Shown here: positions 50,856 through 64,000 of the stretch, piece by piece
Position numbering within the stretch: the stretch's first letter is position 1
How the letters are laid out: every line of letters starts with the position of its first letter
Assembly: GCA_017555105.1 (NCBI GenBank)
Contig: JAFZHB010000015.1
Location: forward strand, 110,973-174,972
DNA length: 64,000 nucleotides
Direction: 5' to 3'
Source of the DNA: Alistipes sp.
GTDB lineage: Bacteria; Bacteroidota; Bacteroidia; Bacteroidales; Rikenellaceae
Made by a program: the position numbers and the translations under genes
Notes under the pieces: model-generated
Told to the model about the DNA's origin: nothing
Database searches by the model: none
Seen by the model: the letters and a program-made list of their open reading frames with translations, nothing else

Positions 50856-53135
50856 TTATTGTTTCGGTAATAGAATTTTCACATCCTTAGCACGGCTCTC
50901 AGGCAGCACACGCAGCTGCACCACCTCACCGCCGCGCAGCTCACACTCGACCGTGGTTTGATTCGGGGCATGGAGCTTAAAGCGTACATCCCACTCCTGC
51001 GGCCAGGCGGGGAAGAGCACGATGCGATCGCCGTCGGTCTGCATCAACATCTCCTGCAGGCCAATGGCGCCACTGCCGCCCCAATTCAAGTCGGGCGTCC
51101 AATCGAAGCCCGGTCCCCAGAAGGCGGGGAAGCGATGCGGGCCATTGGAGAGTTTCTCGGTGGTCAGGCGCACGGCATCCTCGGTTTGACCAAGCATCGC
51201 CGCCCAGATATTATCCTGCTTCCAACCCTTCGAGGAGCGCATCGCCACGGCGTGGTCGTCGTAGAGGTAGGTGTTGCGTGCCACCTCGATCGACCCTTCC
51301 GAGGCCATCGAGTAGTAGCGCCACGGGAAGACGGGATAGAGTTGCGGTGTCTCGCTGTTGTTGATGCGCTCCCACGCCACGGCCGGCGCAATCATCTCAC
51401 GCCCCTCGACAATGCGGTGAGGCACCTCGGGGATGCGATCGCGTAGCGCACGCCACGGCGCAACAGCCGTGTCGCCCTGCATCTGCTTCACCTCGATGTA
51501 AGTATCCAACACCCGCTGCAGACCCGCCACCGTAGAGGAGGCGTTATAGGTCATCTTATAAGTCTCACAACCCGAGCCGGGGAAGAGAATCAGCTTCTTA
51601 TTGCCATCGAGGCGGTTGCGACCACGGCGCGAAGCAAGGTATTGATAGTGCTCGTCGAAGAAGCGCAGTGAGCTCTCGATCAGCGGCTTATAGCGCTCAA
51701 TATCGGCGCGGTCGTAGCGATAGGTCTCCAGAATCATCTGGCAGAACTCCAGCACCGTATCCCAGCAATGCTCCAACCAGGCGTTGTACTCCACACCCTT
51801 ATCGAACCACTCGGGACGCTTCGTACCATACTCCATGTAGTTCGGCAGGCCGAAGAGCTCGATCTGCTCGGTGAAGGATGCACCCTCGTGTCCCCAATAG
51901 TAACGCGAACGCAGCTCGGCATTCTCACGCATACGCTCATAGAAGTTGAACTCCACGGGCATCAAATCGAAGTCACCCGAACGCAGCATCGGCCAGTAGA
52001 CCAGACGCTGGTTCTGCGCCGTCATCGTACCACCGCCCCAATTGCGGAAGTCGGGCGTAAAGCGCTGCTCGGCCACCACGAACTCCGGGTCGAAGGTAAA
52101 GAGGCCTCCGTTGAACTTCGTCGGATCGCTACCCGTTCGGTTGCAACCCAGCATATAGCGGAAGAGCGTATAGTTGCGTGTAATCTCGGTAGCCTTTCCT
52201 GCGCCCTCAATCCAGCTGCGCTGCCAGAAGTCGGCCCACCACTGCTCAGTGCGCTGCTTGGCCTGCTTCTCGCCGCGCATAGCGGTACGAGCCACCTGCT
52301 CAAGCTCCGTGATCCAGGGCGACACCAACTCGCTCTGCTTCGTATGCAGGGCGATTGTGAAAGCTACTTGACGCTGCGGACGCTCCGTGCGGAAGCGCCA
52401 AGCGCGGTAGTCGGTCGAGCAGTAAACACCCTCCTGCGTACCCACATAGGTCAGGTCGCCACTCCATAGACGGCCACCCGAAATCAGGTGAGCCAGCGGA
52501 TTCCACAGCTGCTCCTTCACGGGCTCCATCCCCTCCACCTCGACCGTGCGATCGAAGAGCGTACGGGCGGGGTTGTGGTGGTAGAAGGTCACCGCGTGAT
52601 CGGTCGGGAGCACCGTGTCGGCCGTAGTGATCAGTCCTGCGGGCTTCGCCCACTTGTGGGAGTTCTGACGCCCCTCCAACTTGCGGTAGGGACGATCCTG
52701 GTAGCGCCAATTCTCATAGGCCACCTCGCACATCACCGCCTTGGGGCTCTCAACGCGCACCTGCACCACGGGTGCAAAGGCATCGACCCAAAGGGTCACT
52801 TTTGCCCCCTGCATCTCCACGAGCATCTCGCTCTTCGAGAGGCGCAGCGTCTGGCTGAAGGGAGCTTGCTGATCGCCACCCTCGATCGTCAGGCGCACAC
52901 GACCCGCCTTGAGGAGCGTGTTGTGCTCATCGTATGAACCGCTGCGGCAGATGTAAAACAGGAGCTCATCGCCCTCGACCCAGACATTCAGACCCACATC
53001 TCCACCACCAAGCGGCATCGACTCCGAGGAGTTGGCGCTCTGCGTCGTCCAAATGAAATCGGCCGGTTGCGCCTGCACCATCCACGATCCAAACGCAAGA
53101 GCAGCCAGCAAGAAGTATCTTCTTAAATTGATCAT
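50856..53135 (-). CDS. GH95-like secreted protein (DUF5703 type)
   Basis: A 759-residue exported protein (signal to VQAQ). The N-terminal domain (QSANSSESMPLGGGDVGLNVWVEGDELLFYICRSG) resembles the beta-sandwich in front of GH95 fucosidase-type enzymes; the middle is an alpha/alpha barrel (YTLFRYMLGCNRTGSDPTKFNGGLFTFD ... QNQRLVYWPML ... ELFGLPNYMEYG), and the end is a small beta domain with LFPAWPQEWDVRFKL, also GH95-like. I infer an exo-glycosidase for L-fucose or galactose type residues, but classical GH95 catalytic residues were not confirmed. Confidence 0.72.
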   Translation of the reverse strand: MINLRRYFLLAALAFGSWMVQAQPADFIWTTQSANSSESMPLGGGDVGLNVWVEGDELLFYICRSGSYDEHNTLLKAGRVRLTIEGGDQQAPFSQTLRLSKSEMLVEMQGAKVTLWVDAFAPVVQVRVESPKAVMCEVAYENWRYQDRPYRKLEGRQNSHKWAKPAGLITTADTVLPTDHAVTFYHHNPARTLFDRTVEVEGMEPVKEQLWNPLAHLISGGRLWSGDLTYVGTQEGVYCSTDYRAWRFRTERPQRQVAFTIALHTKQSELVSPWITELEQVARTAMRGEKQAKQRTEQWWADFWQRSWIEGAGKATEITRNYTLFRYMLGCNRTGSDPTKFNGGLFTFDPEFVVAEQRFTPDFRNWGGGTMTAQNQRLVYWPMLRSGDFDLMPVEFNFYERMRENAELRSRYYWGHEGASFTEQIELFGLPNYMEYGTKRPEWFDKGVEYNAWLEHCWDTVLEFCQMILETYRYDRADIERYKPLIESSLRFFDEHYQYLASRRGRNRLDGNKKLILFPGSGCETYKMTYNASSTVAGLQRVLDTYIEVKQMQGDTAVAPWRALRDRIPEVPHRIVEGREMIAPAVAWERINNSETPQLYPVFPWRYYSMASEGSIEVARNTYLYDDHAVAMRSSKGWKQDNIWAAMLGQTEDAVRLTTEKLSNGPHRFPAFWGPGFDWTPDLNWGGSGAIGLQEMLMQTDGDRIVLFPAWPQEWDVRFKLHAPNQTTVECELRGGEVVQLRVLPESRAKDVKILLPKQ

Positions 53136-53163
53136 TTTGAATTTTGAATTCTAAACCTTGAAT
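53136..53163 (-). repeat. Heptamer tandem repeat, copy 2
   Basis: Read on the minus strand the 7-mers are ATTCAAG, GTTTAGA, ATTCAAA, ATTCAAA, ending directly at the ATG of the GH95-like gene. They fill 28 of the 32 bases between the esterase stop and that start. Confidence 0.88.
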
Positions 53164-53167
53164 TTAG

Positions 53168-54619
53168 CTACTCCTTAATCGGAGCCGGATCGGGCCAATC
53201 GTCCGTACGGAACGACGAGATCGGCAGACCATCCGAGCCAAAGAGGTCGCCCACGACCCAATCCTCAAAACCATAGCGCACGGCTACCGGATTGGGCACC
53301 TGATCGCTCGAGACGATCAGTTTCTTCTGCTTGACCTTGGCCGTTGCAGGATAGAATACGCGATCCTCACCGGCAATCTTCACCCACTTCGACTCGAAGG
53401 CGTGCTTGCACGAGATCCACATCGGGGCGCGATCGAACGAGATCTCGATCGTGCTACCCTTGATCTCCATCGATTTATAGACGGGGCTGTCGCAGTAGAT
53501 ACCCTCGAAGCCGTAGGTCTTGGCCAGCGCGTGGAGCGCCAAGCGCTCACCCGGGGTTTGCTTGTCGTAGGGGTGGATACCATCCTTCATACCCTTGTCG
53601 AGCAGCACGGCCATACCCGAATTGGGCACCATATGCTCCACCTTGGCCTGCTGTTCACGCAGATAGGCCGAGTTGTAGCGCGGCTGACCGGCAGCCGTGA
53701 TGATGTCGTAATCGAACGGCGCAATTTGGCAGTAGTAGAAGGGGAAGTCGCCCTGACCCCATGCCTCGCGCCACCCCTTGATCATCGTGGCGTGCAGATC
53801 GGCGTAGTAGTAGGCGCGATTCCAGTTGTCGCATCCCTGATACCAGATCACTCCGCGCATGGCCATACCGACAATCGGCTTGAGCATGCCGTTCCAGAGC
53901 GCCGTCGGGCAGCGCTGCTGCGTCTTGTCCACCTCGGCCTGCGTCTTGGGAAGCGTCACCTGCGGGAAGGCCGAGAGCATCTCCTCGGTCATCCACGCCT
54001 CACAAGCCGAACCTCCCCATGCCACACAGATCAGACCCACGGGCACCTGCAGTTCCTCCTGGATCATGCGACCGAAGTAGTAGGCCGTAGCCGAGAACTC
54101 GCGAATCGAGAGCGGCTTGGCCTCATTCCACTTACCCACAACATCCTCGACCTCCTCGATCTTGGCGTTGCGCTTCACCGTAAAGAGACGGATATGGGGG
54201 TTCGTACCCTTCGCAGCATCGAGGTTGCCATTCTCCACGGGCTGGTTCTTGAATCCCTTCATCGGCATCTCCATATTCGACTGTCCGGAGCAGACCCACA
54301 CCTCGCCCAGCATCACATTCTGCAGCGTCAGCACCTCGCCATCCGAGATCGTCACACAGTAGGGGCCTCCTGCCTCCACCGTCGGGATCGTGATTTTCCA
54401 GCGGCCCTCGGCATCCGCCTTGGTGGTGAAGCTCTTACCACTCCACGACGGGGTCACCTTCACCTGTTTGTTGGGCGTAGCCCAGCCCCACAGCGGGGCA
54501 TCGGTCTGCTGCTGCAGCACCATGTTATCACCAAAGATGGCGGGCATCTTCACCTCAGCCGAGGCCGTCAACGCCAGCACAAGCGCCACGGCAAGGGTCA
54601 ACATTCGATTCAGTTTCAT
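53168..54619 (-). CDS. Sialate O-acetylesterase-family (SASA) carbohydrate esterase
   Basis: Exported SGNH-type esterase of 483 residues (signal MKLNRMLTLAVALVLALTASA). An N-terminal beta domain (GDNMVLQQQTDAPLWGW) is followed by the nucleophile block VWVCSGQSNMEMPM, VGLICVAWGGSACEAWM, and the Asp-x-x-His part in DGIHPYDKQTPGERLA. The usual WYQGESN segment reads WYQGCDN here. In pectin loci such enzymes remove O-acetyl groups from galacturonate or rhamnose-bearing chains, opening them for the GH106 encoded just upstream in the same operon. Sialic acid itself is not implied. Confidence 0.88.
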   Translation of the reverse strand: MKLNRMLTLAVALVLALTASAEVKMPAIFGDNMVLQQQTDAPLWGWATPNKQVKVTPSWSGKSFTTKADAEGRWKITIPTVEAGGPYCVTISDGEVLTLQNVMLGEVWVCSGQSNMEMPMKGFKNQPVENGNLDAAKGTNPHIRLFTVKRNAKIEEVEDVVGKWNEAKPLSIREFSATAYYFGRMIQEELQVPVGLICVAWGGSACEAWMTEEMLSAFPQVTLPKTQAEVDKTQQRCPTALWNGMLKPIVGMAMRGVIWYQGCDNWNRAYYYADLHATMIKGWREAWGQGDFPFYYCQIAPFDYDIITAAGQPRYNSAYLREQQAKVEHMVPNSGMAVLLDKGMKDGIHPYDKQTPGERLALHALAKTYGFEGIYCDSPVYKSMEIKGSTIEISFDRAPMWISCKHAFESKWVKIAGEDRVFYPATAKVKQKKLIVSSDQVPNPVAVRYGFEDWVVGDLFGSDGLPISSFRTDDWPDPAPIKE

Positions 54620-54644
54620 ATCGGTTTTGTTTTATCTATTTAGC

Positions 54645-57600
54645 TTATTTCGGTTGCGTAATCTCCAACTCAAGCGGACCAAGCAGACCTGCAGGCAGGA
54701 GCGTCTGCTCCTTGCGGCGATAGGGGGCATTGGTCCAGATGCCGCGGAAGGGCGCTTTCCCCTGCTCCGCTCCGAGCAGGGCGTTTGCCCAGGTGTTCGA
54801 CACCTCGATCAAAAGTTTATTCTCACCCTTCTGCAACGCATCGGTCAGGTCGACCTCGTAGGGCTCCGTCCACGCCACACCGCAAGCCTTGCCGTTGAGC
54901 GTCACCGCCGCCACATCGCAGACGCGACCCAGACGGAGAATCACGCGCTCACCCTTGCGCGGCTTGTAGTTGAACGAGGTGCGGTACTCCACCGTACCCG
55001 AGTGGTAGCGCAACTCGTAGTGCGCCTTCTGCGACCAATCGAAGAGCTCCTCGCTACGCTCCGTACGCTTACCCTGCACACCCAGATCGAACGAGATCCA
55101 CCAGGGCTCAGTCTTCAACGGCTCGATGCGCGCCTCGGCATGCTGCGCCACCACCTGCGGCGCCTCACCGGCACGACGGAAGACCACGAAGAGTGAGCCG
55201 TTTGCCTCGAGCTCCAGCGTCAACTGCGTGCGTCCCTGCTCCACGCTCCAGACTGCAGCATCAGCCACCTCGCCCGTGAGCGGATTCCAAAGTTCAGGCA
55301 CACGACCTGCCACGCGCAGCGATAGATCGATCGTGCGACGCTCAGCGCGCTGGTTTGCAATGAAGTAGATATCCGTATCATCCTCCTCCGAGCGTCGGTG
55401 CGTCCAAGCCACCTCCTCGGCCACGATCACATCGCGCTCCAGACCATAGGCAGCGAAGTCCTCCTCCACATAGGGGATCTCGGGGATAATCACACCACCC
55501 GCCTTCAGCTCCTCGATCTTGGCACGCACCTCCGCGCTCATATGCCCCATCGGGTTCATCGGATGCGGAGCGGGCACTACAAAGACCTTGTACGAAGCGC
55601 CTCCCGGCAACACCATACGGCCATCCTTCACCTCGGCCAGGCGCAACAGTGCATCGCGGTTGAACGAGTCGTAGGCATAGCCGCGCAGCGGGTTCACCCA
55701 CTGCTCGGGATCGGCCATATTGGCCGAGTGGCTCACACCCACGGGACGGGTACGCAGCGGCTGACCCTCGTTGGCCAGGCGCACGCGCTCACGCTCTACA
55801 CGCTCCGCACCAAAGAGGCCGGGGAGCGAGGGCACGAGACGATCCGGCAGGATCGAGCGGCGCGGCATCTCCTCACCCGTGAAGACCGCCAGATCCACCA
55901 CCGGTACGCCATATTGCAGGAGCGCCTGACAACGCGCCGCATATTCGCTCAGCGCCTTGCCACCATGTTTAAACCAGGTGTTATCACGCTGGAAGTAGAG
56001 ACCGATGCCATCGAGCGTCATGCCCGGGCGGCGATCCATCCACGGATTGTGGGCATAGACATGGTAAACCAAGCGGTTCAGGCCCAGCGCGTAGTTGCGA
56101 TCGAGCAGCGGCTTGAGCATCGCCGGGGTCTCATCCCAGACGCCACGCACCTCCGTGAAGCCCTCAGCCGAGATGATCCGCTTGCCATAGACACGACCGC
56201 CGCTGATGGCATCCATCATATCATTCGGCTTGTCGTGCGTGGGGCTGTTGAGCCAGAACTCACCCATCGGCAGATCGACCTTATCGTAGTGATACATACC
56301 GTCGCTCACCATCGTCGGCGCTACACTCTCGGCCGTGAAGCGGCACTCATACAGGTCAGCCTTCTCGGCCAACACATCGAAGAAGACATCGTGTACCAAC
56401 TCGGCAATCGTCTCGCGCACATCACGCAACACACGCTCCGACTCCTCTGCCGAGACCATCGGAATACCCGCAAAGAGGGGCAACCACGGCATGAGGTCAT
56501 AGCCGCGACGCGCCTGGAACTCGGCCGCGAAATTGGAGCTCCAATTCTGCGAACCGCACTCCCAGCTATCGACATAGAGGATCTTCAACACACGCTTGGC
56601 CACCTCGGGATCGATCGTGCGGTAGATCTTGCCAAACCAATTGTCGATCTGCTTACCCACCGCTTCGCGGCTAAACTTATCGCACTCCAAACCTCGACCT
56701 GCGCCGCCCGTAGCGTTCGTGTGCCCCGTTGTCGTGTGGCCGATGCGCACCAAGCGCCAGCTGCCCGCAGGCAGTTCAGCCGTCAGGCAGTCTCCCTGGA
56801 GTGCCTGCGTCAGGTCGATCACCTCGTCGAGCTGCACACAATCCTCCGTAGCAACCTCTTGTGCCGTCGTCTCACGCGCTACGCGCCATACATAACCGGC
56901 CTTGCCCTCCCACTGATGGATGCGGGGCGTGCCACGGAAGCGTATCTCCTTGATTTTCAAATTAGCCTTCCACTTAGCAGCATCCAGATCCTCCGAGCCG
57001 GGCTCGCTCCCGTCGGGAGTCCACGCGAAACGGAACTCGCGTCCCGTGGTCGGAGGAATGGCGTGCGTCGAGTCAAAATCGGTATTCTGCCAGCCGTGAC
57101 GAGCCGGCTCAAAGGCCTTCACCAACTGATAGTCGCCCTCGGGCGTGCGCACGCTCATCACCAGACGATGTGCCTGGTAGTTGTTACCTCCCAGGACGAT
57201 CTCCACATTGTGCAGGGTCACCTCCTCGGGGAAAGTGCAGGTGATCTCACACGCCGCACCCGAGCTGACGCCTCCCGTAGGGTTCAGCACTGCGCGCTGC
57301 TTCTCCGTCTGCGGCTCAACCGTATTGCGCACCGAGAGGGTCGGTTTCGGTAGTTCGAATACCCCCTTCATCGGCATCGCCACCAAGGCAATGTCTTCGT
57401 AGTAGTTCTCCAGGTGTGCCGGCTTGGCAAGCTCTAACGAAAAAGGCTTACCACCCTCGACCACCTGCTCACTCGTCACCACCTTCTGCATCGACTCCGC
57501 AGGCGAGATCCACGGACCTCCGGCCAGCGCAAAGCCATCGCAGATATGTACACCCAGCTGCAACCCGAGACGGTCGGCCTCGTTGAAGGCCGTCTGCACA

Positions 57601-57899
57601 CGCTGCCACCAATTCTCGGTCAACTGATCCGAGTCGCCCTGGAAGGGAACGCCTCGCTTATCGTCGCTCGAACGGATCGTCACGAGGTAAGCACCACCCA
57701 GCCCGACATCGGCCATCGACTGCAAGTCGGCACGCACCCCCTCATCGGAGATGGCGCCATACATCCAATACCAAAGCGTCCAGGGACGCGCATCGCCCGT
57801 CGGTGTGCGAAATTGCTCATCGAGCTGTTGTGCCACGGCGGGCGAAAGGATCGCCAGCGCGAGGAGTAAAACGGTGATTCGTAGCGTAGAAAATCTCAT
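54645..57899 (-). CDS. GH106-family alpha-L-rhamnosidase
   Basis: Exported 1084-residue enzyme with signal peptide MRFSTLRITVLLLALAILSPAVAQ. The start of the mature protein, RPWTLWYWMYGAISDEGVRADLQSMADVGLGGAYLV, is the characteristic GH106 opening, followed by GLQLGVHICDGFALAGGPWI and EGFTEVRGVWDETPAMLKPLLDR, and a C-terminal galactose-binding-type beta domain (YELRYHSGTVEYRTSFNY ... LIEVSNTWANALLG). GH106 enzymes remove terminal L-rhamnose from pectic rhamnogalacturonans and other rhamnosides. First gene of the GH106-SASA-GH95-like-GH2 operon. Confidence 0.9.
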   Translation of the reverse strand: MRFSTLRITVLLLALAILSPAVAQQLDEQFRTPTGDARPWTLWYWMYGAISDEGVRADLQSMADVGLGGAYLVTIRSSDDKRGVPFQGDSDQLTENWWQRVQTAFNEADRLGLQLGVHICDGFALAGGPWISPAESMQKVVTSEQVVEGGKPFSLELAKPAHLENYYEDIALVAMPMKGVFELPKPTLSVRNTVEPQTEKQRAVLNPTGGVSSGAACEITCTFPEEVTLHNVEIVLGGNNYQAHRLVMSVRTPEGDYQLVKAFEPARHGWQNTDFDSTHAIPPTTGREFRFAWTPDGSEPGSEDLDAAKWKANLKIKEIRFRGTPRIHQWEGKAGYVWRVARETTAQEVATEDCVQLDEVIDLTQALQGDCLTAELPAGSWRLVRIGHTTTGHTNATGGAGRGLECDKFSREAVGKQIDNWFGKIYRTIDPEVAKRVLKILYVDSWECGSQNWSSNFAAEFQARRGYDLMPWLPLFAGIPMVSAEESERVLRDVRETIAELVHDVFFDVLAEKADLYECRFTAESVAPTMVSDGMYHYDKVDLPMGEFWLNSPTHDKPNDMMDAISGGRVYGKRIISAEGFTEVRGVWDETPAMLKPLLDRNYALGLNRLVYHVYAHNPWMDRRPGMTLDGIGLYFQRDNTWFKHGGKALSEYAARCQALLQYGVPVVDLAVFTGEEMPRRSILPDRLVPSLPGLFGAERVERERVRLANEGQPLRTRPVGVSHSANMADPEQWVNPLRGYAYDSFNRDALLRLAEVKDGRMVLPGGASYKVFVVPAPHPMNPMGHMSAEVRAKIEELKAGGVIIPEIPYVEEDFAAYGLERDVIVAEEVAWTHRRSEEDDTDIYFIANQRAERRTIDLSLRVAGRVPELWNPLTGEVADAAVWSVEQGRTQLTLELEANGSLFVVFRRAGEAPQVVAQHAEARIEPLKTEPWWISFDLGVQGKRTERSEELFDWSQKAHYELRYHSGTVEYRTSFNYKPRKGERVILRLGRVCDVAAVTLNGKACGVAWTEPYEVDLTDALQKGENKLLIEVSNTWANALLGAEQGKAPFRGIWTNAPYRRKEQTLLPAGLLGPLELEITQPK

Positions 57900-57936
57900 G
57901 GTTCGGGTCTAAATTCGGTATAGTATACTCAACATA

Positions 57937-57967
57937 CAAAGATATGCAAACGAAATGAAAAATCAAA
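57937..57967 (-). promoter_or_regulatory. Promoter for the GH106 operon
   Basis: Minus strand: TTTG (57964-57967), 19-nt spacer and TATCTTTG (57937-57944). Around the expected start site lies an 11-bp palindrome GTATA-N-TATAC (57918-57928) that could be an operator. Confidence 0.72.
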
Positions 57968-58002
57968 GGCCCAAAGCGACGAAACGGCAAAATTCAAGGG
58001 CG

Positions 58003-58037
58003 AAAAAAGCGGGGTGCATCCCGTAGGAGCACCCCGC
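58003..58037 (-). terminator. Terminator of the aldolase-SSS-fucI operon
   Basis: On the minus strand GCGGGGTGC and GCACCCCGC form a 9-bp GC-rich stem followed by six T residues. Confidence 0.9.
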
Positions 58038-58070
58038 CCAAAGTCGCATTCAAAATCTGCAAGCGCAGAA

Positions 58071-58105
58071 CTTCAATTTTGAATTTTGAATTCTAAATTT
58101 TGATT
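58071..58105 (-). repeat. Heptamer tandem repeat, copy 3
   Basis: Read on the minus strand the 7-mers are AATCAAA, ATTTAGA, ATTCAAA, ATTCAAA, ATTGAAG, beginning at the first base after the fucI stop codon. Confidence 0.9.
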
Positions 58106-59878
58106 TTACTTGTAGATAGGACCATAGTTCTGGCAAGCACGGTAGTCGGCACCCTCCGGATCCATGCCGTGAGCAGCCCACGACGAGGGACGGAAGATCT
58201 TCTCCTCCTCCACATTGTGCATGCAAACGGGGATGCGCAGCATCGAGCAGAGCGTAATGAGCTCAGCACCGATGTGACCATAGCTCACAGCACCGTGGTT
58301 TGCACCCCAATTGTTCATCACCGAATATACATCCTTAAAGTAGCCCTTGCCCGTCAGGCGCGGAGCAAACCAGGTGGTCGGCCAGGTGCGGTCCGTACGG
58401 TTGTTGATCACCTCGAAGATGTGCGGATCGGTGTTCACAGCCCAACCCTCGGCCAGCTGCAGCACGGGACCTACACCCTTCACCAGGTTCAGACGGCACA
58501 TCGTCATCGGCATCTCACCACGCGTGAGGAAGTGCGACGAGTAACCGCCACCACGGAAGTAACCACGATCGGCCGGATACCAGGTGGTAGCCGCCAAGCA
58601 CTTGTTCTGCTCCTCCTCGGTGATCTCCCAGAAGGGCTTCATCGTCGGGTTACCCTCGGCATCCGACTGCTGACCCGTAGCATCGAGCGTACATGCACCC
58701 GAGTTGATCAGGTGGATGATACCACCGGCAGCCTTACCCTCGAGCTTCATGCCCGATACGCGCTCAACAGCCTCAGGCGACCAGTAGGTACGCACATCGG
58801 CAAACATCTGCGAGCGGTTCGTCAGAAGTTTCATGAGCAACATCGAAACACCATTCAGCGTATCGTTCTCGGTAGCCAGCACGATCGGCTCGCGCAGGCC
58901 GTTCCAGTCGTACGAGGTGTTGAGCATCGCCTCAGCAAAGTCACCATTGGGCTTCCAGTCCGTCCACTGACGCTGACCCTGGAAACCACCCACGATGGCG
59001 TTGTGACCGCAGCCCTCCTCCTCGAAGCCCATCTCAGCGAGCTTCTCGTTACCGATCATCAGGTCGCGCATGATGAGCATCATCTTCACGACAAACTCCC
59101 AGTTCTGATCCTTCTCCTCGCGGCTGTAGACCAGATCCTCACGATTCCAATCCTTGCCCTCGTTCGGCTTGCAGTACTGCTCTACCCACGCCATAGCCTT
59201 CTCAAATTCGGCCTGGTCGTAGATACCCTGCTCCATACGACGCAGGATCTCCGTCTCGTCTACATACTCGTTGCGCATACCGAGGTACTCCTGGAAGAAG
59301 TCCGGATCGCAGGTCGAGCCGGCAATACCCATCGACACAGCACCGATCGAGAGGTACGACTTGCCCTTCATCTGCATCACAGCCAACGCTGCACGACCGA
59401 ACAAGAGGAGCTTCTCCTGCACATCGGCCGGAATCGACATATCCTCTACATCCTGCACATCGTGGCCATAGATACCGAATGCGGGCAGACCTTTCTGCGA
59501 GTGGGCAGCCAACGCAGCAGCCAGGTACACAGCACCCGGGCGCTCCGTACCGTTGAAGCCCCAGATAGCCTTCGGCATCAGCGGATCCATATCGATCGTC
59601 TCCGTACCATAGCACCAGCAGGGGGTTACCGACAACACTGCACCTACATTGTTATCGCGGAACTTATCAGCGCAGGCAGCAGCCTCAGCCACGCCACCGA
59701 TCGTCGTGTCGGCAATCACGCACTGAACAGGCGTACCATCCGAGTAGCGCAAGTGCTCCTCATAGAACTTAGCCACCGACTCGGCCATACCCATCGTCTT
59801 AGCCTCCAGCGACTCGCGCACACCGCGACGACGACCGTCGATCACGGGGCGAATACCAATTTTCGGATAATTTTTCAT
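58106..59878 (-). CDS. fucI: L-fucose isomerase
   Basis: Mn-dependent ketol isomerase converting L-fucose to L-fuculose (and D-arabinose to D-ribulose). The 590-residue length and the whole sequence follow Fuc[22 protein letters not shown] at the start, metal/catalytic Glu in [10 protein letters not shown] (near 334), Asp in [18 protein letters not shown] (near 358) and the His in [19 protein letters not shown] (near 535). Cytosolic. Third gene of the DapA-like-SSS-fucI operon. No fuculose kinase or aldolase is adjacent. Confidence 0.96.
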
Positions 59879-59911
59879 GGTTTTTCTCTCTTTATAGTTT
59901 TAGTTGTTAGC

Positions 59912-61387
59912 CTATTTCTTGTTAAAAAGTTTAGTCAGCACGAAGCCCACCAGGAAGATAGCCGTCGTACCAAAGACAATCGTCAGATAGGTGTGCAGCG
60001 GCGAGTGGAACTCGTAGAAGGGCGAGCCCTCGTTGATCAGCGGCGAGAGGCTCATCCACGCAATCACCAGCAGACCCACGATGACGGCAGCCACCGAGTG
60101 CGACTGCTTGACCTTGTGGCAGACAAGCGAGAGGAGGAAGAGACCCAGCATACCACCACTGAAGATCGAAGCGAGCTTCCACCAAGCATCGAGCACACCG
60201 TCGATATGCATCATCATCAGACCCATCACAATACCCAGGCCACCCACCACAAACGAGGCAAGGTAGAGGACATTCATATTCTTCTTCTCGCTCATCTCCT
60301 GCTTCGAGAAGCGCTTCACGAAGTCCGTCAGCACGATCGTCGCCGAGGAGTTGATACTCGTTGCGATCGTCGACATACCGGCCGAGAAGAGCGAAGCGAT
60401 CACCAGACCCGTCAGACCGGTCGGCAGACCATGCACAATGAACCACGGGAAGACCTTATCCGAGGCCGTACCCGCAGGCAGCAGCTCGGGCTGCGCCGTG
60501 TAGTAGGCGAAGAGCGCCGTGCCGATGTAGACGAAGACGAGCGACACGGGGATGTAGAGCAACGAACCAAACAGGGTTGATTTCACCGCCTCGGCCGTCG
60601 ACTTCGTGGTCATATAGCGCTGCACATAGTTCTGGTCGATGCCGTAGTTCTGCATATTGGTAAACAGACCATAGATGAGCACCACCCAGAAGGTCGGCTC
60701 GGCCAGGCTTGCACCAAAGCTACCCAGCGAGAACTTCCCGCTCGCCGAGGCGATCTGGAAGAGTTGCGAGGGGCCCTCGGGCATCGTAAAGGTGAGCAGC
60801 GCAGCACAAGCCACCGCACCCACGATCAGGATGATACCCTGAATAGCATCGGTCCACACCACCGCCGCAATACCACCCAAGAGCGTGTAAACCAGCGTAA
60901 TGACTCCCGTCCAGATAATGATCGACTGAATATCCCAGCCAAACATCGTATTGATCGGCAGCGCCAGGAGCAGCAGGATCGAACCCACGCGCGCCAGCTG
61001 CGTCAAGAGGTAGCAGATCGCCACATAGCAACGAGCCCAGTAACCAAACTTCTGCTCCAGGTAGTGGTAGGCCGAGACACTGTTCACATTGCGGTAGAGC
61101 GGAATGAAGATCTTGGCCGCCAGCCAGGTCGCAATCGGGATCGAGAGTGAGAAGACAAACGGATTCCAGTTACCGGCAAAGGCCTGTCCGGGCAGACCGA
61201 GGAAGGAGATCGAGGAGACGAAGGTGGCGAAGATCGACATACCCACCACCCAGGTCGGCAGCGATCCCTCAGCCTTCGTAAAGGCAGCCGCACCCTTGCT
61301 CGAACGGAAGTAGAACGAGCACCCGAAGAGGGCTACACCTCCCACGAAGATAAAGAAGACAATGTAATCGAGAAGCGTCAGTTCCAT
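59912..61387 (-). CDS. Sodium:solute symporter (SSS family)
   Basis: Inner-membrane Na-coupled transporter of 491 residues with about 13 hydrophobic segments. Family features: SIFATFVSSISFLGLPGQAFAGNW (helix 2, Na-site region), VNSVSAYHYLEQKFG, GGIAAVVWTDAIQGIILIVGA, and NYGIDQNYVQRYMTTKS. SSS members import sugars, sialic acid, amino acids or carboxylates. Position between fucI and an aldolase gene suggests a sugar or sugar acid; the exact one is unknown. Confidence 0.9.
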   Translation of the reverse strand: MELTLLDYIVFFIFVGGVALFGCSFYFRSSKGAAAFTKAEGSLPTWVVGMSIFATFVSSISFLGLPGQAFAGNWNPFVFSLSIPIATWLAAKIFIPLYRNVNSVSAYHYLEQKFGYWARCYVAICYLLTQLARVGSILLLLALPINTMFGWDIQSIIIWTGVITLVYTLLGGIAAVVWTDAIQGIILIVGAVACAALLTFTMPEGPSQLFQIASASGKFSLGSFGASLAEPTFWVVLIYGLFTNMQNYGIDQNYVQRYMTTKSTAEAVKSTLFGSLLYIPVSLVFVYIGTALFAYYTAQPELLPAGTASDKVFPWFIVHGLPTGLTGLVIASLFSAGMSTIATSINSSATIVLTDFVKRFSKQEMSEKKNMNVLYLASFVVGGLGIVMGLMMMHIDGVLDAWWKLASIFSGGMLGLFLLSLVCHKVKQSHSVAAVIVGLLVIAWMSLSPLINEGSPFYEFHSPLHTYLTIVFGTTAIFLVGFVLTKLFNKK

Positions 61388-61420
61388 TTAGTCCAATTTT
61401 CAGGATTCAACAAGCGAACA

Positions 61421-62320
61421 TTACGCCTTCAGCGCCTCCAATGCCTGACGCACCTTCTCACGCTCCTCTGCACGGAACTTGCGGTAGGGATACGAGAGGT
61501 AGTCGTCGCAGATGCCAAGCAGCGAGAGGGCGCACTTTACACCCTTCAGGTAGCTCGAACCATACTTACCCACCGTGTAGATCGAGGTCGAGATCTGCAT
61601 AATGCGACGCTGCAGCTCGCGCACACGCTTGATGTCGCAACGCTCGGCAGCCTCGAACATCTCCACATAGAGCTCAGGGAACATATTCGCACCGCCGTTC
61701 ACGCCACCATCGGCGCCCATCAGCACGCACTCACCGGTCAGCTCCTCCGGGCCCACATAGAGCGAGAAGTCCTCACGGTCGCCCAAGAGGTAGATCAGCG
61801 TCTCAAAGTAGTTCATATTGGCCGACGAATCCTTCAGACCCACAATATTGGGGTGATCTGCCAACACAGCCACGGTCTTGGCCTCGAGGAACACCTTCAC
61901 ATGCGAAGGCATGTTGTAGAGGTAGAGTGGCAGGCAGAGTGCATCGGCCAGAGCCGTATAGTACTCGATCAACTCCTGCTGCGAAGCGGCAAAGTAGTAG
62001 GGAGCAGCAGCCACCACACCCACAGCACCACACGCCTTGGCGTGCTCGGCCAAACGCACGCTCTCGTCGAGCGAAGTATCGGTCACACCCACCAGAACAG
62101 GCACGCGACCGGCCACCTGCTTGAGCACCAGCTCAACAAACTCGTAGCGCAGGTTGTAGGTCAGACTCTGCGCCTCACCCGTCGTACCCAGAATAAAGAG
62201 GGCGTGTACGCCACCCTTCAGCATGTGCTCGATCAGGCGTACTGCGCCCTCACGGTCCAACTCATCGTTACCCTTCAACGGGGTGATCATCGGAGGAATA
62301 ATGCCTCGTAACTTTTTCAT
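61421..62320 (-). CDS. DapA/NanA-family class I aldolase
   Basis: A 299-residue TIM-barrel aldolase/lyase using pyruvate Schiff-base chemistry. Lys163 in VGLKDSS is the Schiff-base residue, Tyr135 in LYLYNMP the catalytic tyrosine, and GTTGE (45-49) the carboxylate-binding loop. Pathway members include dihydrodipicolinate synthase, N-acetylneuraminate lyase and 2-keto-3-deoxy sugar acid aldolases; the co-transcription with fucI and an SSS symporter favours a sugar-acid or sialate-type substrate over lysine synthesis. First gene of the operon. Confidence 0.88.
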   Translation of the reverse strand: MKKLRGIIPPMITPLKGNDELDREGAVRLIEHMLKGGVHALFILGTTGEAQSLTYNLRYEFVELVLKQVAGRVPVLVGVTDTSLDESVRLAEHAKACGAVGVVAAAPYYFAASQQELIEYYTALADALCLPLYLYNMPSHVKVFLEAKTVAVLADHPNIVGLKDSSANMNYFETLIYLLGDREDFSLYVGPEELTGECVLMGADGGVNGGANMFPELYVEMFEAAERCDIKRVRELQRRIMQISTSIYTVGKYGSSYLKGVKCALSLLGICDDYLSYPYRKFRAEEREKVRQALEALKA

Positions 62321-62382
62321 AGTGCTGATTAGTTTTTATTTTTTAGTTGTTTCAATTGCCTTGTTAGCCATTTTAAGCCAAA

Positions 62383-62390
62383 CAAAGATA
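62383..62390 (-). promoter_or_regulatory. Probable -7 element of the aldolase operon
   Basis: TATCTTTG on the minus strand, about 62 nt before the aldolase start; no clear TTG at the right distance upstream. Confidence 0.5.
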
Positions 62391-62453
62391 TAAAAATTTG
62401 TTGAATTCTCATATAAAATTCACTTTCTCTCCCACCTTTTGTCAATATTTTCG

Positions 62454-62461
62454 TATCTTTG
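62454..62461 (+). promoter_or_regulatory. Probable -7 element of the GH28 gene
   Basis: TATCTTTG, 29 nt before the GH28 start; a TTTTG lies only 12 nt upstream, so the -33 partner is doubtful. Confidence 0.5.
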
Positions 62462-62490
62462 GTCAAATTTCCAACTCAAAACCATTTTTT

Positions 62491-63894
62491 ATGAAAATCA
62501 AACACCTCATTTTGCCGCTGATCGCGGTGGCTGTAGCCGCCTGCACGGCTCCTTCGCAGAGCGAATTGGCCTGGAAGAAACTCTACCCCGAGATCGAGTC
62601 GAAGATCATTGCTCCGACCTTCCCCGAGAAGAACTTCGACATCCGCGACTTTGGCGCTAAACCCGAGGTTGCTTCGCACGATGCAATCAACGCAGCCATC
62701 GACCAGTGTTCGGCCGAGGGTGGTGGCCATGTGATCGTACCCGCAGGTACCTGGCTCACGGGCGCACTCTGCCTCAAGTCGAATGTCGATCTGCACCTCG
62801 AGGAGGGCGCTACGCTGCTCTTCTCGGACAACCTGGATCACTACCCGCTCGTACGCACCCGCTGGGAGGGTATGGACTGCATCAACTACTCGCCGATGAT
62901 CTACGCCTTCCAGCAGGAGAACATTGCTGTAACGGGTCTTGGTACGCTCGACGGTGGTGCTTCACTCCAGAACTGGTGGTCGATGGTATGGAATGTAGAG
63001 ACGAATTGGGAGAAGGAGCGTCGCAACTCACAACGCTATGGCCGTCCCCTGCTGCAGGAGTGGATGGACGCCAAGAAGCCGATCGAGGAGCGCGTGATGG
63101 GTCACGGCTATGGTATGCGTCCGCAGCTGGTAAGCCCCTTCGAGTGTAAGAACATCCTCATCGAGGGCGTTACGATGATCCGCTCGCCCTTCTGGAACCT
63201 GCATCCCGTATTCTGCGAGAACATCACCGTACGCGATGTGAAGTTCAACAACGATGGCCCGAACGGCGACGGTTGCGACCCCGAGTCGTGCAACTATGTG
63301 CTGATCGAGGATTGCTACTTCAACACGGGTGATGACTGCATCGCCATCAAGTCGGGTCGCGACGGTGACGCTCGCGCATTCGAGATCCCGAGCCAGAACA
63401 TGATCGTCCGCAACTGCGAGATGAAGAACGGCCACGGTGGTGTGGTTGTCGGCAGTGAGATCGGTGCTGGTTACAAGAACCTCTTCGTAGAGAACTGCGA
63501 TATGGATTCGCCCGAGCTGGATCGCGCTATCCGCATCAAGACGAATGCCCGCCGCGGTGGTGTCATCGAGCACATCTATGTACGCAATGTAACGGTTGGC
63601 GAGTGCAAGGAGGCGGTGCTGAAGATCAACCTGATCTACGACCAGAAGAGCGTAGGCGACGCTACGGACTACCCCGTTGTACAGGATGTCTACCTGGAGA
63701 ATGTTACGAGCCAGAAGAGCCGCTATGGTGTCTGCGTAACCGCGCTGGAGAATGTCAACAACATCCACAACATCTATGTCAAGAACTGCGAGTTCAACAA
63801 CCTGAAGCAGGAGGAGTCGATCAAGGGTCTGTGCGATCCGATCAACTACGAGCAGGTGGCCATGAACATCGCCGCTGTGGAGTCGGTGGAGTAA
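62491..63894 (+). CDS. GH28-family polygalacturonase, lipoprotein
   Basis: Hydrolyses alpha-1,4-galacturonosyl or rhamnogalacturonan linkages. The ATG at 62491 gives a lipoprotein signal with lipobox VAAC, so the enzyme is surface- or periplasm-anchored; the longer frame to 62398 is discarded because it covers the promoter. The 467-residue beta-helix shows all GH28 motifs: NGDGCDPESC (near 255), TGDDCIAIKSG with the catalytic Asp pair (near 279), NGHGGVVVGSE with the conserved His (near 314) and RIKT (near 348). It is the only rightward gene of the pectin region, divergent from the aldolase operon. Confidence 0.94.
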   Translation: MKIKHLILPLIAVAVAACTAPSQSELAWKKLYPEIESKIIAPTFPEKNFDIRDFGAKPEVASHDAINAAIDQCSAEGGGHVIVPAGTWLTGALCLKSNVDLHLEEGATLLFSDNLDHYPLVRTRWEGMDCINYSPMIYAFQQENIAVTGLGTLDGGASLQNWWSMVWNVETNWEKERRNSQRYGRPLLQEWMDAKKPIEERVMGHGYGMRPQLVSPFECKNILIEGVTMIRSPFWNLHPVFCENITVRDVKFNNDGPNGDGCDPESCNYVLIEDCYFNTGDDCIAIKSGRDGDARAFEIPSQNMIVRNCEMKNGHGGVVVGSEIGAGYKNLFVENCDMDSPELDRAIRIKTNARRGGVIEHIYVRNVTVGECKEAVLKINLIYDQKSVGDATDYPVVQDVYLENVTSQKSRYGVCVTALENVNNIHNIYVKNCEFNNLKQEESIKGLCDPINYEQVAMNIAAVESVE

Positions 63895-64000
63895 TCTCGC
63901 CTCATGCACACAAAAAAAGAACCTACCGGCCGGTAGGTTCTTTTTTTGTGTGCATGAGGCGAGATTACTCCACCGACTCCACAGCGGCGATGTTCATGGC
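63859..64000. repeat. Perfect 142-bp palindrome reaching the window end
   Basis: Bases 63930-64000 are the exact reverse complement of 63859-63929. The left arm holds the last 36 bases of the GH28 gene plus its terminator half; the right arm repeats these in reverse, so it would read as the 3' end of an identical gene on the minus strand. The palindrome may extend beyond the window. Confidence 0.97.
63912..63947. terminator. Symmetric terminator after GH28
   Basis: A7-GAACCTACC, a GGCC loop, then GGTAGGTTC-T7 make a bidirectional terminator whose sequence is a perfect palindrome; it forms the centre of the larger palindrome 63859-64000. Confidence 0.85.

What the first reader, a model, noticed from the sequence alone, without database searches (positions are those of the whole stretch)
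63859..64000. Perfect 142-bp palindrome containing the GH28 gene end, running to the last base
The sequence turns back on itself exactly at the centre of the GH28 terminator (63929/63930), with no mismatch over 71 bp per arm and no spacer. Long spacerless perfect palindromes are usually unstable in bacteria because hairpin nucleases attack them, and a self-complementary terminator is a natural place for an assembler to fold back. So either this is a contig-end fold-back artefact, or there is a real tail-to-tail duplication of a GH28 gene.
Basis: partly seen in the sequence, partly recalled or inferred. Interest (0 to 1): 0.7.

Follow-up and report, generated by a model that had tools for sequence, protein, structure and literature searches.

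The report
Assembler fold-back at a contig end
The perfect 142-base mirror sequence is almost certainly an assembly error, where the sequence was folded back on itself at an ordinary gene-end hairpin; the true neighbour gene appears to begin another contig.

Summary
Base 64000 is the last base of contig G000:C13 (174,972 bp) in a 22-contig draft genome of an Alistipes-like bacterium. Three results say the right arm is not genomic. (1) In 4 of 7 close relatives GH28 is followed by a terminator and a convergent GH2 beta-galactosidase gene. This genome's GH2 orthologue starts at the first bases of contig C16, 59 bp short of the gene's end, so C13's end and C16's start are probably neighbours. (2) Two pairs of this genome's contig ends overlap by exactly 141 bp, so the assembler's k was 141; a genome holding a contig titled k141_ shows the same. 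(3) A de Bruijn contig folding onto its reverse strand ends on a palindrome of exactly k+1, here 142. None of the other 43 contig ends has a terminal palindrome above 4 bp. The genuine part is a dyad of up to 36 bp, an ordinary terminator. Reads were not available, so a real tail-to-tail duplication is improbable but not formally excluded.

The parts
62491..63894 (+). GH28 (polygalacturonase-like) gene, complete, stop codon at 63892-63894
   Evidence: inside the ORF 62398-63894, which the tool starts at an earlier TTG; the ATG at 62491 is my choice. Pfam PF00295 Glyco_hydro_28, E 1.3e-24
63912..63947 (.). 36-bp dyad A7-GAACCTACCGG/CCGGTAGGTTC-T7: an ordinary intrinsic terminator and the pivot of the fold-back. 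The genuine dyad may be this long or shorter, since its right half cannot be checked.
   Evidence: sequence; five other sites in the same genome with the same stem type but other loops; orthologous loci carry terminator-like dyads about 35 bp after the GH28 stop
63859..63929 (+). left arm: end of GH28 plus the left half of the terminator
63930..64000 (.). right arm: exact reverse complement of 63859-63929. Beyond about 63947 it is judged an assembly fold-back, not genomic sequence.
61421..62320 (-). DHDPS-family gene next to GH28; a near-identical neighbour lies beside the GH28 of G020 (L082:5-910), which supports orthology of the locus
   Evidence: PF00701; translations

Best explanation
The right arm is an assembly artefact. 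The GH28 gene ends in a nearly loopless, self-complementary terminator. At that dyad the sequence (a fold-back library molecule, or the assembly graph itself) turned onto its own reverse strand. The assembler, working with k = 141, walked through the central palindromic (k+1)-mer and stopped, because the next step was the reverse complement of sequence already used. The contig therefore ends on a palindrome of exactly 142 bp. In the real genome the terminator is followed, after a short intergenic stretch, by a convergent GH2 beta-galactosidase gene, which is the start of contig C16. Shown: the contig end, exact 141-bp overlaps of other contig ends, palindrome = 141+1, and C16 beginning in the syntenic GH2 gene. 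Inferred: that k was 141, that C13 and C16 are physically joined, and how the fold-back arose. I favour fold-back chimeric reads over a pure graph effect, about 60:40, because a k = 141 path needs support over 142 bp, far more than the 36-bp dyad.
For: The last base is the contig end. Two pairs of contig ends in this genome (C2s/C9s and C15s/C10e) overlap by exactly 141 bases, out of 44 ends compared (43 of them). A control genome (G061, reached through L108, whose contig is titled k141_...) shows exact 141-base sharing in 3 end pairs among 40 ends. A toy edge-based de Bruijn walk through a folded copy of this locus stops with an end palindrome of k+1 for 5 of 5 values of k, giving 142 at k = 141. 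In 4 of 7 close relatives the GH28 gene is followed by a terminator and a convergent GH2 gene, 74-495 bp between stops. The window genome's GH2 match starts at C16:2 and covers residues 1-1066 of 1086; C16:1-6697 is collinear with G020 at 77% identity, and the next gene follows in order. The other 43 of 44 contig ends carry no terminal palindrome above 4 bp (40 of these, the remaining 3).
Against: No reads, coverage or long reads were available, so the C13-C16 junction is inferred from synteny. The assembler used for this genome is not known. A real spacerless palindrome would also make a k = 141 contig end on 142 bp, so the length alone does not separate artefact from reality. In one of the 5 relatives with a readable downstream gene (L104) the convergent gene is not GH2, so the arrangement is not fixed in the group. 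In 98 readable contig ends of three other genomes holding k141-titled contigs I found no end palindrome of 10 bp or more, so such fold-backs are not common, and two of those three genomes (G062, G063) showed no 141-bp overlaps among the ends I took.
Confidence: 0.95

Rival explanations
1. A real tail-to-tail inverted duplication of the GH28 gene (at least its last 71 bp with the terminator) exists in this strain or in part of the population.
For: The assembled sequence taken at face value.
Against: 0 of 7 close relatives show a second GH28 in the fetched stretch. The GH2 gene that follows GH28 in 4 of 7 relatives begins contig C16 in this genome. The palindrome length equals 141+1. Long spacerless perfect palindromes are unstable in bacteria (recalled: SbcCD cleavage).
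Confidence: 0.03
2. The fold-back is real DNA, but only in the sequencing library: a hairpin or self-primed chimeric molecule made at the terminator during library preparation, faithfully assembled. This is one route inside the best explanation, not an alternative to it.
For: PMC10908179 (abstract and passages shown by the term search) reports chimeric reads holding inverted repeats in sonicated libraries and palindromes in endonuclease-treated libraries. A 142-bp path at k = 141 needs support well beyond the 36-bp dyad (inference).
Against: No reads were seen. An assembler's local extension step could carry a small-k fold-back upwards without any chimeric read (recalled workings of iterative assemblers).
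Confidence: 0.57

Closest known systems
Palindromic contig-end fold-back in de Bruijn assembly (edge-based, MEGAHIT type)
   Same: perfect, spacerless, at the last base of a contig, length k+1, pivot on a short palindrome
Fold-back chimeric reads from library preparation at inverted repeats or palindromes (PDSM model, PMC10908179)
   Same: the strand switches to its own reverse complement at a natural inverted repeat or palindrome
   Different: described there for human targeted sequencing; reads were not available here
Intrinsic (rho-independent) terminator between convergent genes
   Same: A-tract, GC-rich stem and T-tract about 35 bp after the GH28 stop; terminator-like dyads at the same place in relatives
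   Different: the stem here is symmetric through its centre; the five other sites in this genome with the same stem have loops that are not self-complementary

Membership tests
de Bruijn contig-end fold-back artefact | palindrome lies at the very end of a contig | tested here: met
   C13 is 174,972 bp; the window ends at 174972
de Bruijn contig-end fold-back artefact | palindrome length equals k+1 of the assembly | tested here: met
   k = 141 inferred from exact 141-bp overlaps of contig ends, with a control genome holding a k141-titled contig; palindrome 142; toy walk
de Bruijn contig-end fold-back artefact | pivot is a natural short palindrome | tested here: met
   36-bp dyad; terminator-like dyads in 6 of 6 readable orthologous loci. 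Caveat: the right half of this dyad cannot itself be verified.
de Bruijn contig-end fold-back artefact | the true continuation is found elsewhere in the assembly | tested here: met
   the syntenic GH2 gene starts contig C16; the physical join is inferred
de Bruijn contig-end fold-back artefact | reads from native DNA do not support the fold-back | not testable with these tools
   no reads held
real inverted gene duplication | both arms lead into unique flanking sequence | tested here: inconclusive
   the right arm has no flank at all: the contig ends inside it
real inverted gene duplication | a second copy beside the first, in this assembly or in relatives (a very recent duplication need not be shared) | tested here: not met
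   0 of 7 close relatives within the fetched stretches; dyads at the terminators of 6 readable loci have arms of only 12-19 bp; no second copy of the gene end in G000
intrinsic terminator | stable stem followed by a T-tract, downstream of a stop codon | tested here: met
   the right-hand half and T-tract lie inside the palindrome and could themselves be mirrored

The most novel reading that the evidence does not exclude
A real, very recent tail-to-tail inverted duplication of the GH28 gene end, with a long spacerless palindrome tolerated in an Alistipes-like bacterium, present in all or part of the population between GH28 and the GH2 gene.
Probability: 0.03. Interest if true: 0.4.

Novelty: not a real feature. 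Interest (0 to 1): 0.06.

Why it matters
It matters as a warning. A perfect palindrome of exactly k+1 at a contig end is a fingerprint of assembly fold-back, and k can be read from the overlaps between contig ends of the same draft genome. Such ends should be trimmed before claims about inverted duplications, palindromes or hairpins are made. Here it also tells which contig (C16) probably follows C13.

Tried and rejected
Real duplication: rejected as unlikely on synteny, a single GH28 match in relatives, and length = 141+1. A mobile-element end or telomere-like hairpin: rejected, because in relatives the same gene order runs on into a GH2 gene, which in this genome starts another contig. Chance palindrome: excluded. 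SPAdes as the assembler: a palindrome of 128 would be expected at k = 127 (that SPAdes' largest k is 127 is recalled), and 141-bp end overlaps do not fit it. General frequency: I surveyed ends of 20 contigs in each of three genomes holding k141-titled contigs (G061 40 ends, G062 20 starts only, G063 40 ends; 300 bases each). Two G063 ends read N throughout and were dropped. 0 of the remaining 98 had an end palindrome of 10 bp or more and one had 8, so the general rate stays unmeasured. G062 and G063 showed no end overlaps of 18 bp or more once the N pair was dropped. The terminator stem of this genome was not found in those three genomes (0 of 3). The scan of named genomes listed no contig of C13's length and says that records of the window's own genome may be left out, so the contig names, and with them the assembler, could not be read. 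Part's output was lost to runs of N in one locus; the palindrome part was rerun without N. Paper searches on palindromes and assembly or library artefacts: (15 of 123 listed; 12 of 60 listed; 9 of 9 listed) showed no title or abstract start that describes this k+1 signature. I saw listings only, and passages of two papers, so I do not claim that it is unpublished.

Full report
Observation. The palindrome is exactly as described: 63859-64000, arm 71, no mismatch, no spacer, centre 63929/63930. The next longest perfect palindrome in the window has an arm of 9. In 257 held records totalling 986,941 bases, partly overlapping, nothing else exceeds 22 bp apart from 6 re-fetched copies of this same locus. 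The window is G000:C13:110973-174972 and C13 is 174,972 bp long, so the palindrome runs to the end of a contig and not merely of the window. G000 is a 22-contig, 1.77-Mb draft, 86% complete. Its origin is not told.

What is genuine. The left arm holds the last codons of a GH28 gene (62491-63894; PF00295) and then a dyad, A7-GAACCTACCGG/CCGGTAGGTTC-T7, at 63912-63947, an intrinsic terminator. The stem AAAAGAACC...GGTTCTTTT occurs at six places in the genome, this one included. The other five have loops that are not self-complementary; only this one is symmetric through its centre. In relatives, 6 of 6 readable loci carry a terminator-like dyad at the matching place, with arms of 12-19 bp allowing mismatches (in L100 a second dyad further on scored slightly higher). 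For L106 the script set the stop too far downstream, so its centre offset reads -40; the dyad itself is visible in the sequence printed for the same contig (L028).

What should follow. Of 61 genomes searched by DNA, the window's own included, five others have a near full-length orthologue. A scan of named genomes gave 49 loci, of which seven are close (85-91% identity in the best segment): L100-L106, five of whose titles name cecum, colon or rectum of water buffalo, water deer or goat. In four of the seven (L100-L103) the GH28 gene is followed by a convergent GH2 beta-galactosidase gene (domains PF02836 and PF02929 tested on L080, the same contig as L103), with 162, 495, 217 and 74 bp between the two stop codons. 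In L104 a different convergent gene follows (it reads like an elongation-factor G relative, a name from recall). L105 and L106 reach the end of their contigs too soon to tell. GH28 gave one match in each of the seven (E <= 1e-30); no inverted second copy was seen in the fetched stretches.

Where it is in this genome. The GH2 protein's best match in G000 is C16:2-3202 on the minus strand: residues 1-1066 of 1086, 73% identity, running into the first bases of the contig. At DNA level C16:1-6697 is collinear with the G020 stretch, starting at base 60 counted from the end of the GH2 stop codon, and the next gene follows in order. So C16 begins just where the continuation of C13 is expected. The unassembled piece is estimated at about 98 to 519 bp past the palindrome's centre, taking the relatives' spacings.

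Why exactly 142. Contig ends of one de Bruijn assembly that meet at a branch share k bases. Among 44 contig ends of G000 two pairs overlap by exactly 141 bases (C2s/C9s and C15s/C10e). Three more pairs share 92, 32 and 26 bases, which I do not interpret. As a control, G061, reached through a locus whose contig title begins k141_, shows two 141-base overlaps and one 141-base shared terminus among 40 ends; the other two such genomes, G062 (20 ends) and G063 (38 readable ends), show none. I conclude that k was 141 in G000. Use of a largest k of 141 with MEGAHIT is on record, for example in PMC9927493 (passages read). In a graph whose edges are (k+1)-mers, a path that folds back passes one palindromic (k+1)-mer and then meets only the reverse complement of edges already used. 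A toy walk on this locus stops there for k = 87, 99, 119, 127 and 141, leaving an end palindrome of 88, 100, 120, 128 and 142 bp. I recall that MEGAHIT trims palindromic contigs in this way; I did not check its code.

Limits. The k+1 length says where the assembler stopped. It does not alone prove that the fold is false, because a real palindrome would give the same end. Synteny carries that weight: the gene that follows in relatives starts another contig. None of the other 43 contig ends of G000 is palindromic beyond 4 bp, and 0 of 98 readable ends in three other genomes are at 10 bp or more, so this is an occasional event. Whether the fold came from a chimeric library molecule (such molecules are described at inverted repeats and palindromes in PMC10908179; abstract and passages read) or from the graph cannot be told without reads.

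Verdict. The sequence observation is correct and the feature is, in my judgement, an artefact. The right arm beyond about 63947 should be trimmed, and C13 probably continues into C16 through a short unassembled gap.

Noticed in passing
G000 contig ends C2s/C9s, C10e/C15s (L008, L015, L066, L021): Exact 141-bp overlaps suggest that these contigs meet in the assembly graph; C17s/C19e share 92 bp, C5e/C18e 32 bp and C2e/C22s 26 bp.
   Followed up: partly
window 63912-63947; G000:C2:174751, C2:182995, C5:37570, C16:155819, C19:51217: Six terminators in this genome share the stem AAAAGAACC...GGTTCTTTT with different loops, as if one terminator stem were reused. Sequence outside the stem at C2:182995 (GCCTCAACACAC, read on the opposite strand) also resembles the window's GCCTCATGCACAC. 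The stem was found in 0 of 3 control genomes.
   Followed up: partly
window 50856-63894: A run of carbohydrate genes: a DHDPS-family gene and GH28 (Pfam), plus what look like glycoside hydrolases, an esterase, a sugar isomerase and a sodium-solute transporter (names from recall, not searched). Possibly a pectin (rhamnogalacturonan) or fucose utilisation locus.
   Followed up: no
L104:3900-6056: In one relative the gene convergent to GH28 is an elongation-factor-like GTPase (recalled from its sequence), not GH2, so the gene order differs there.
   Followed up: no
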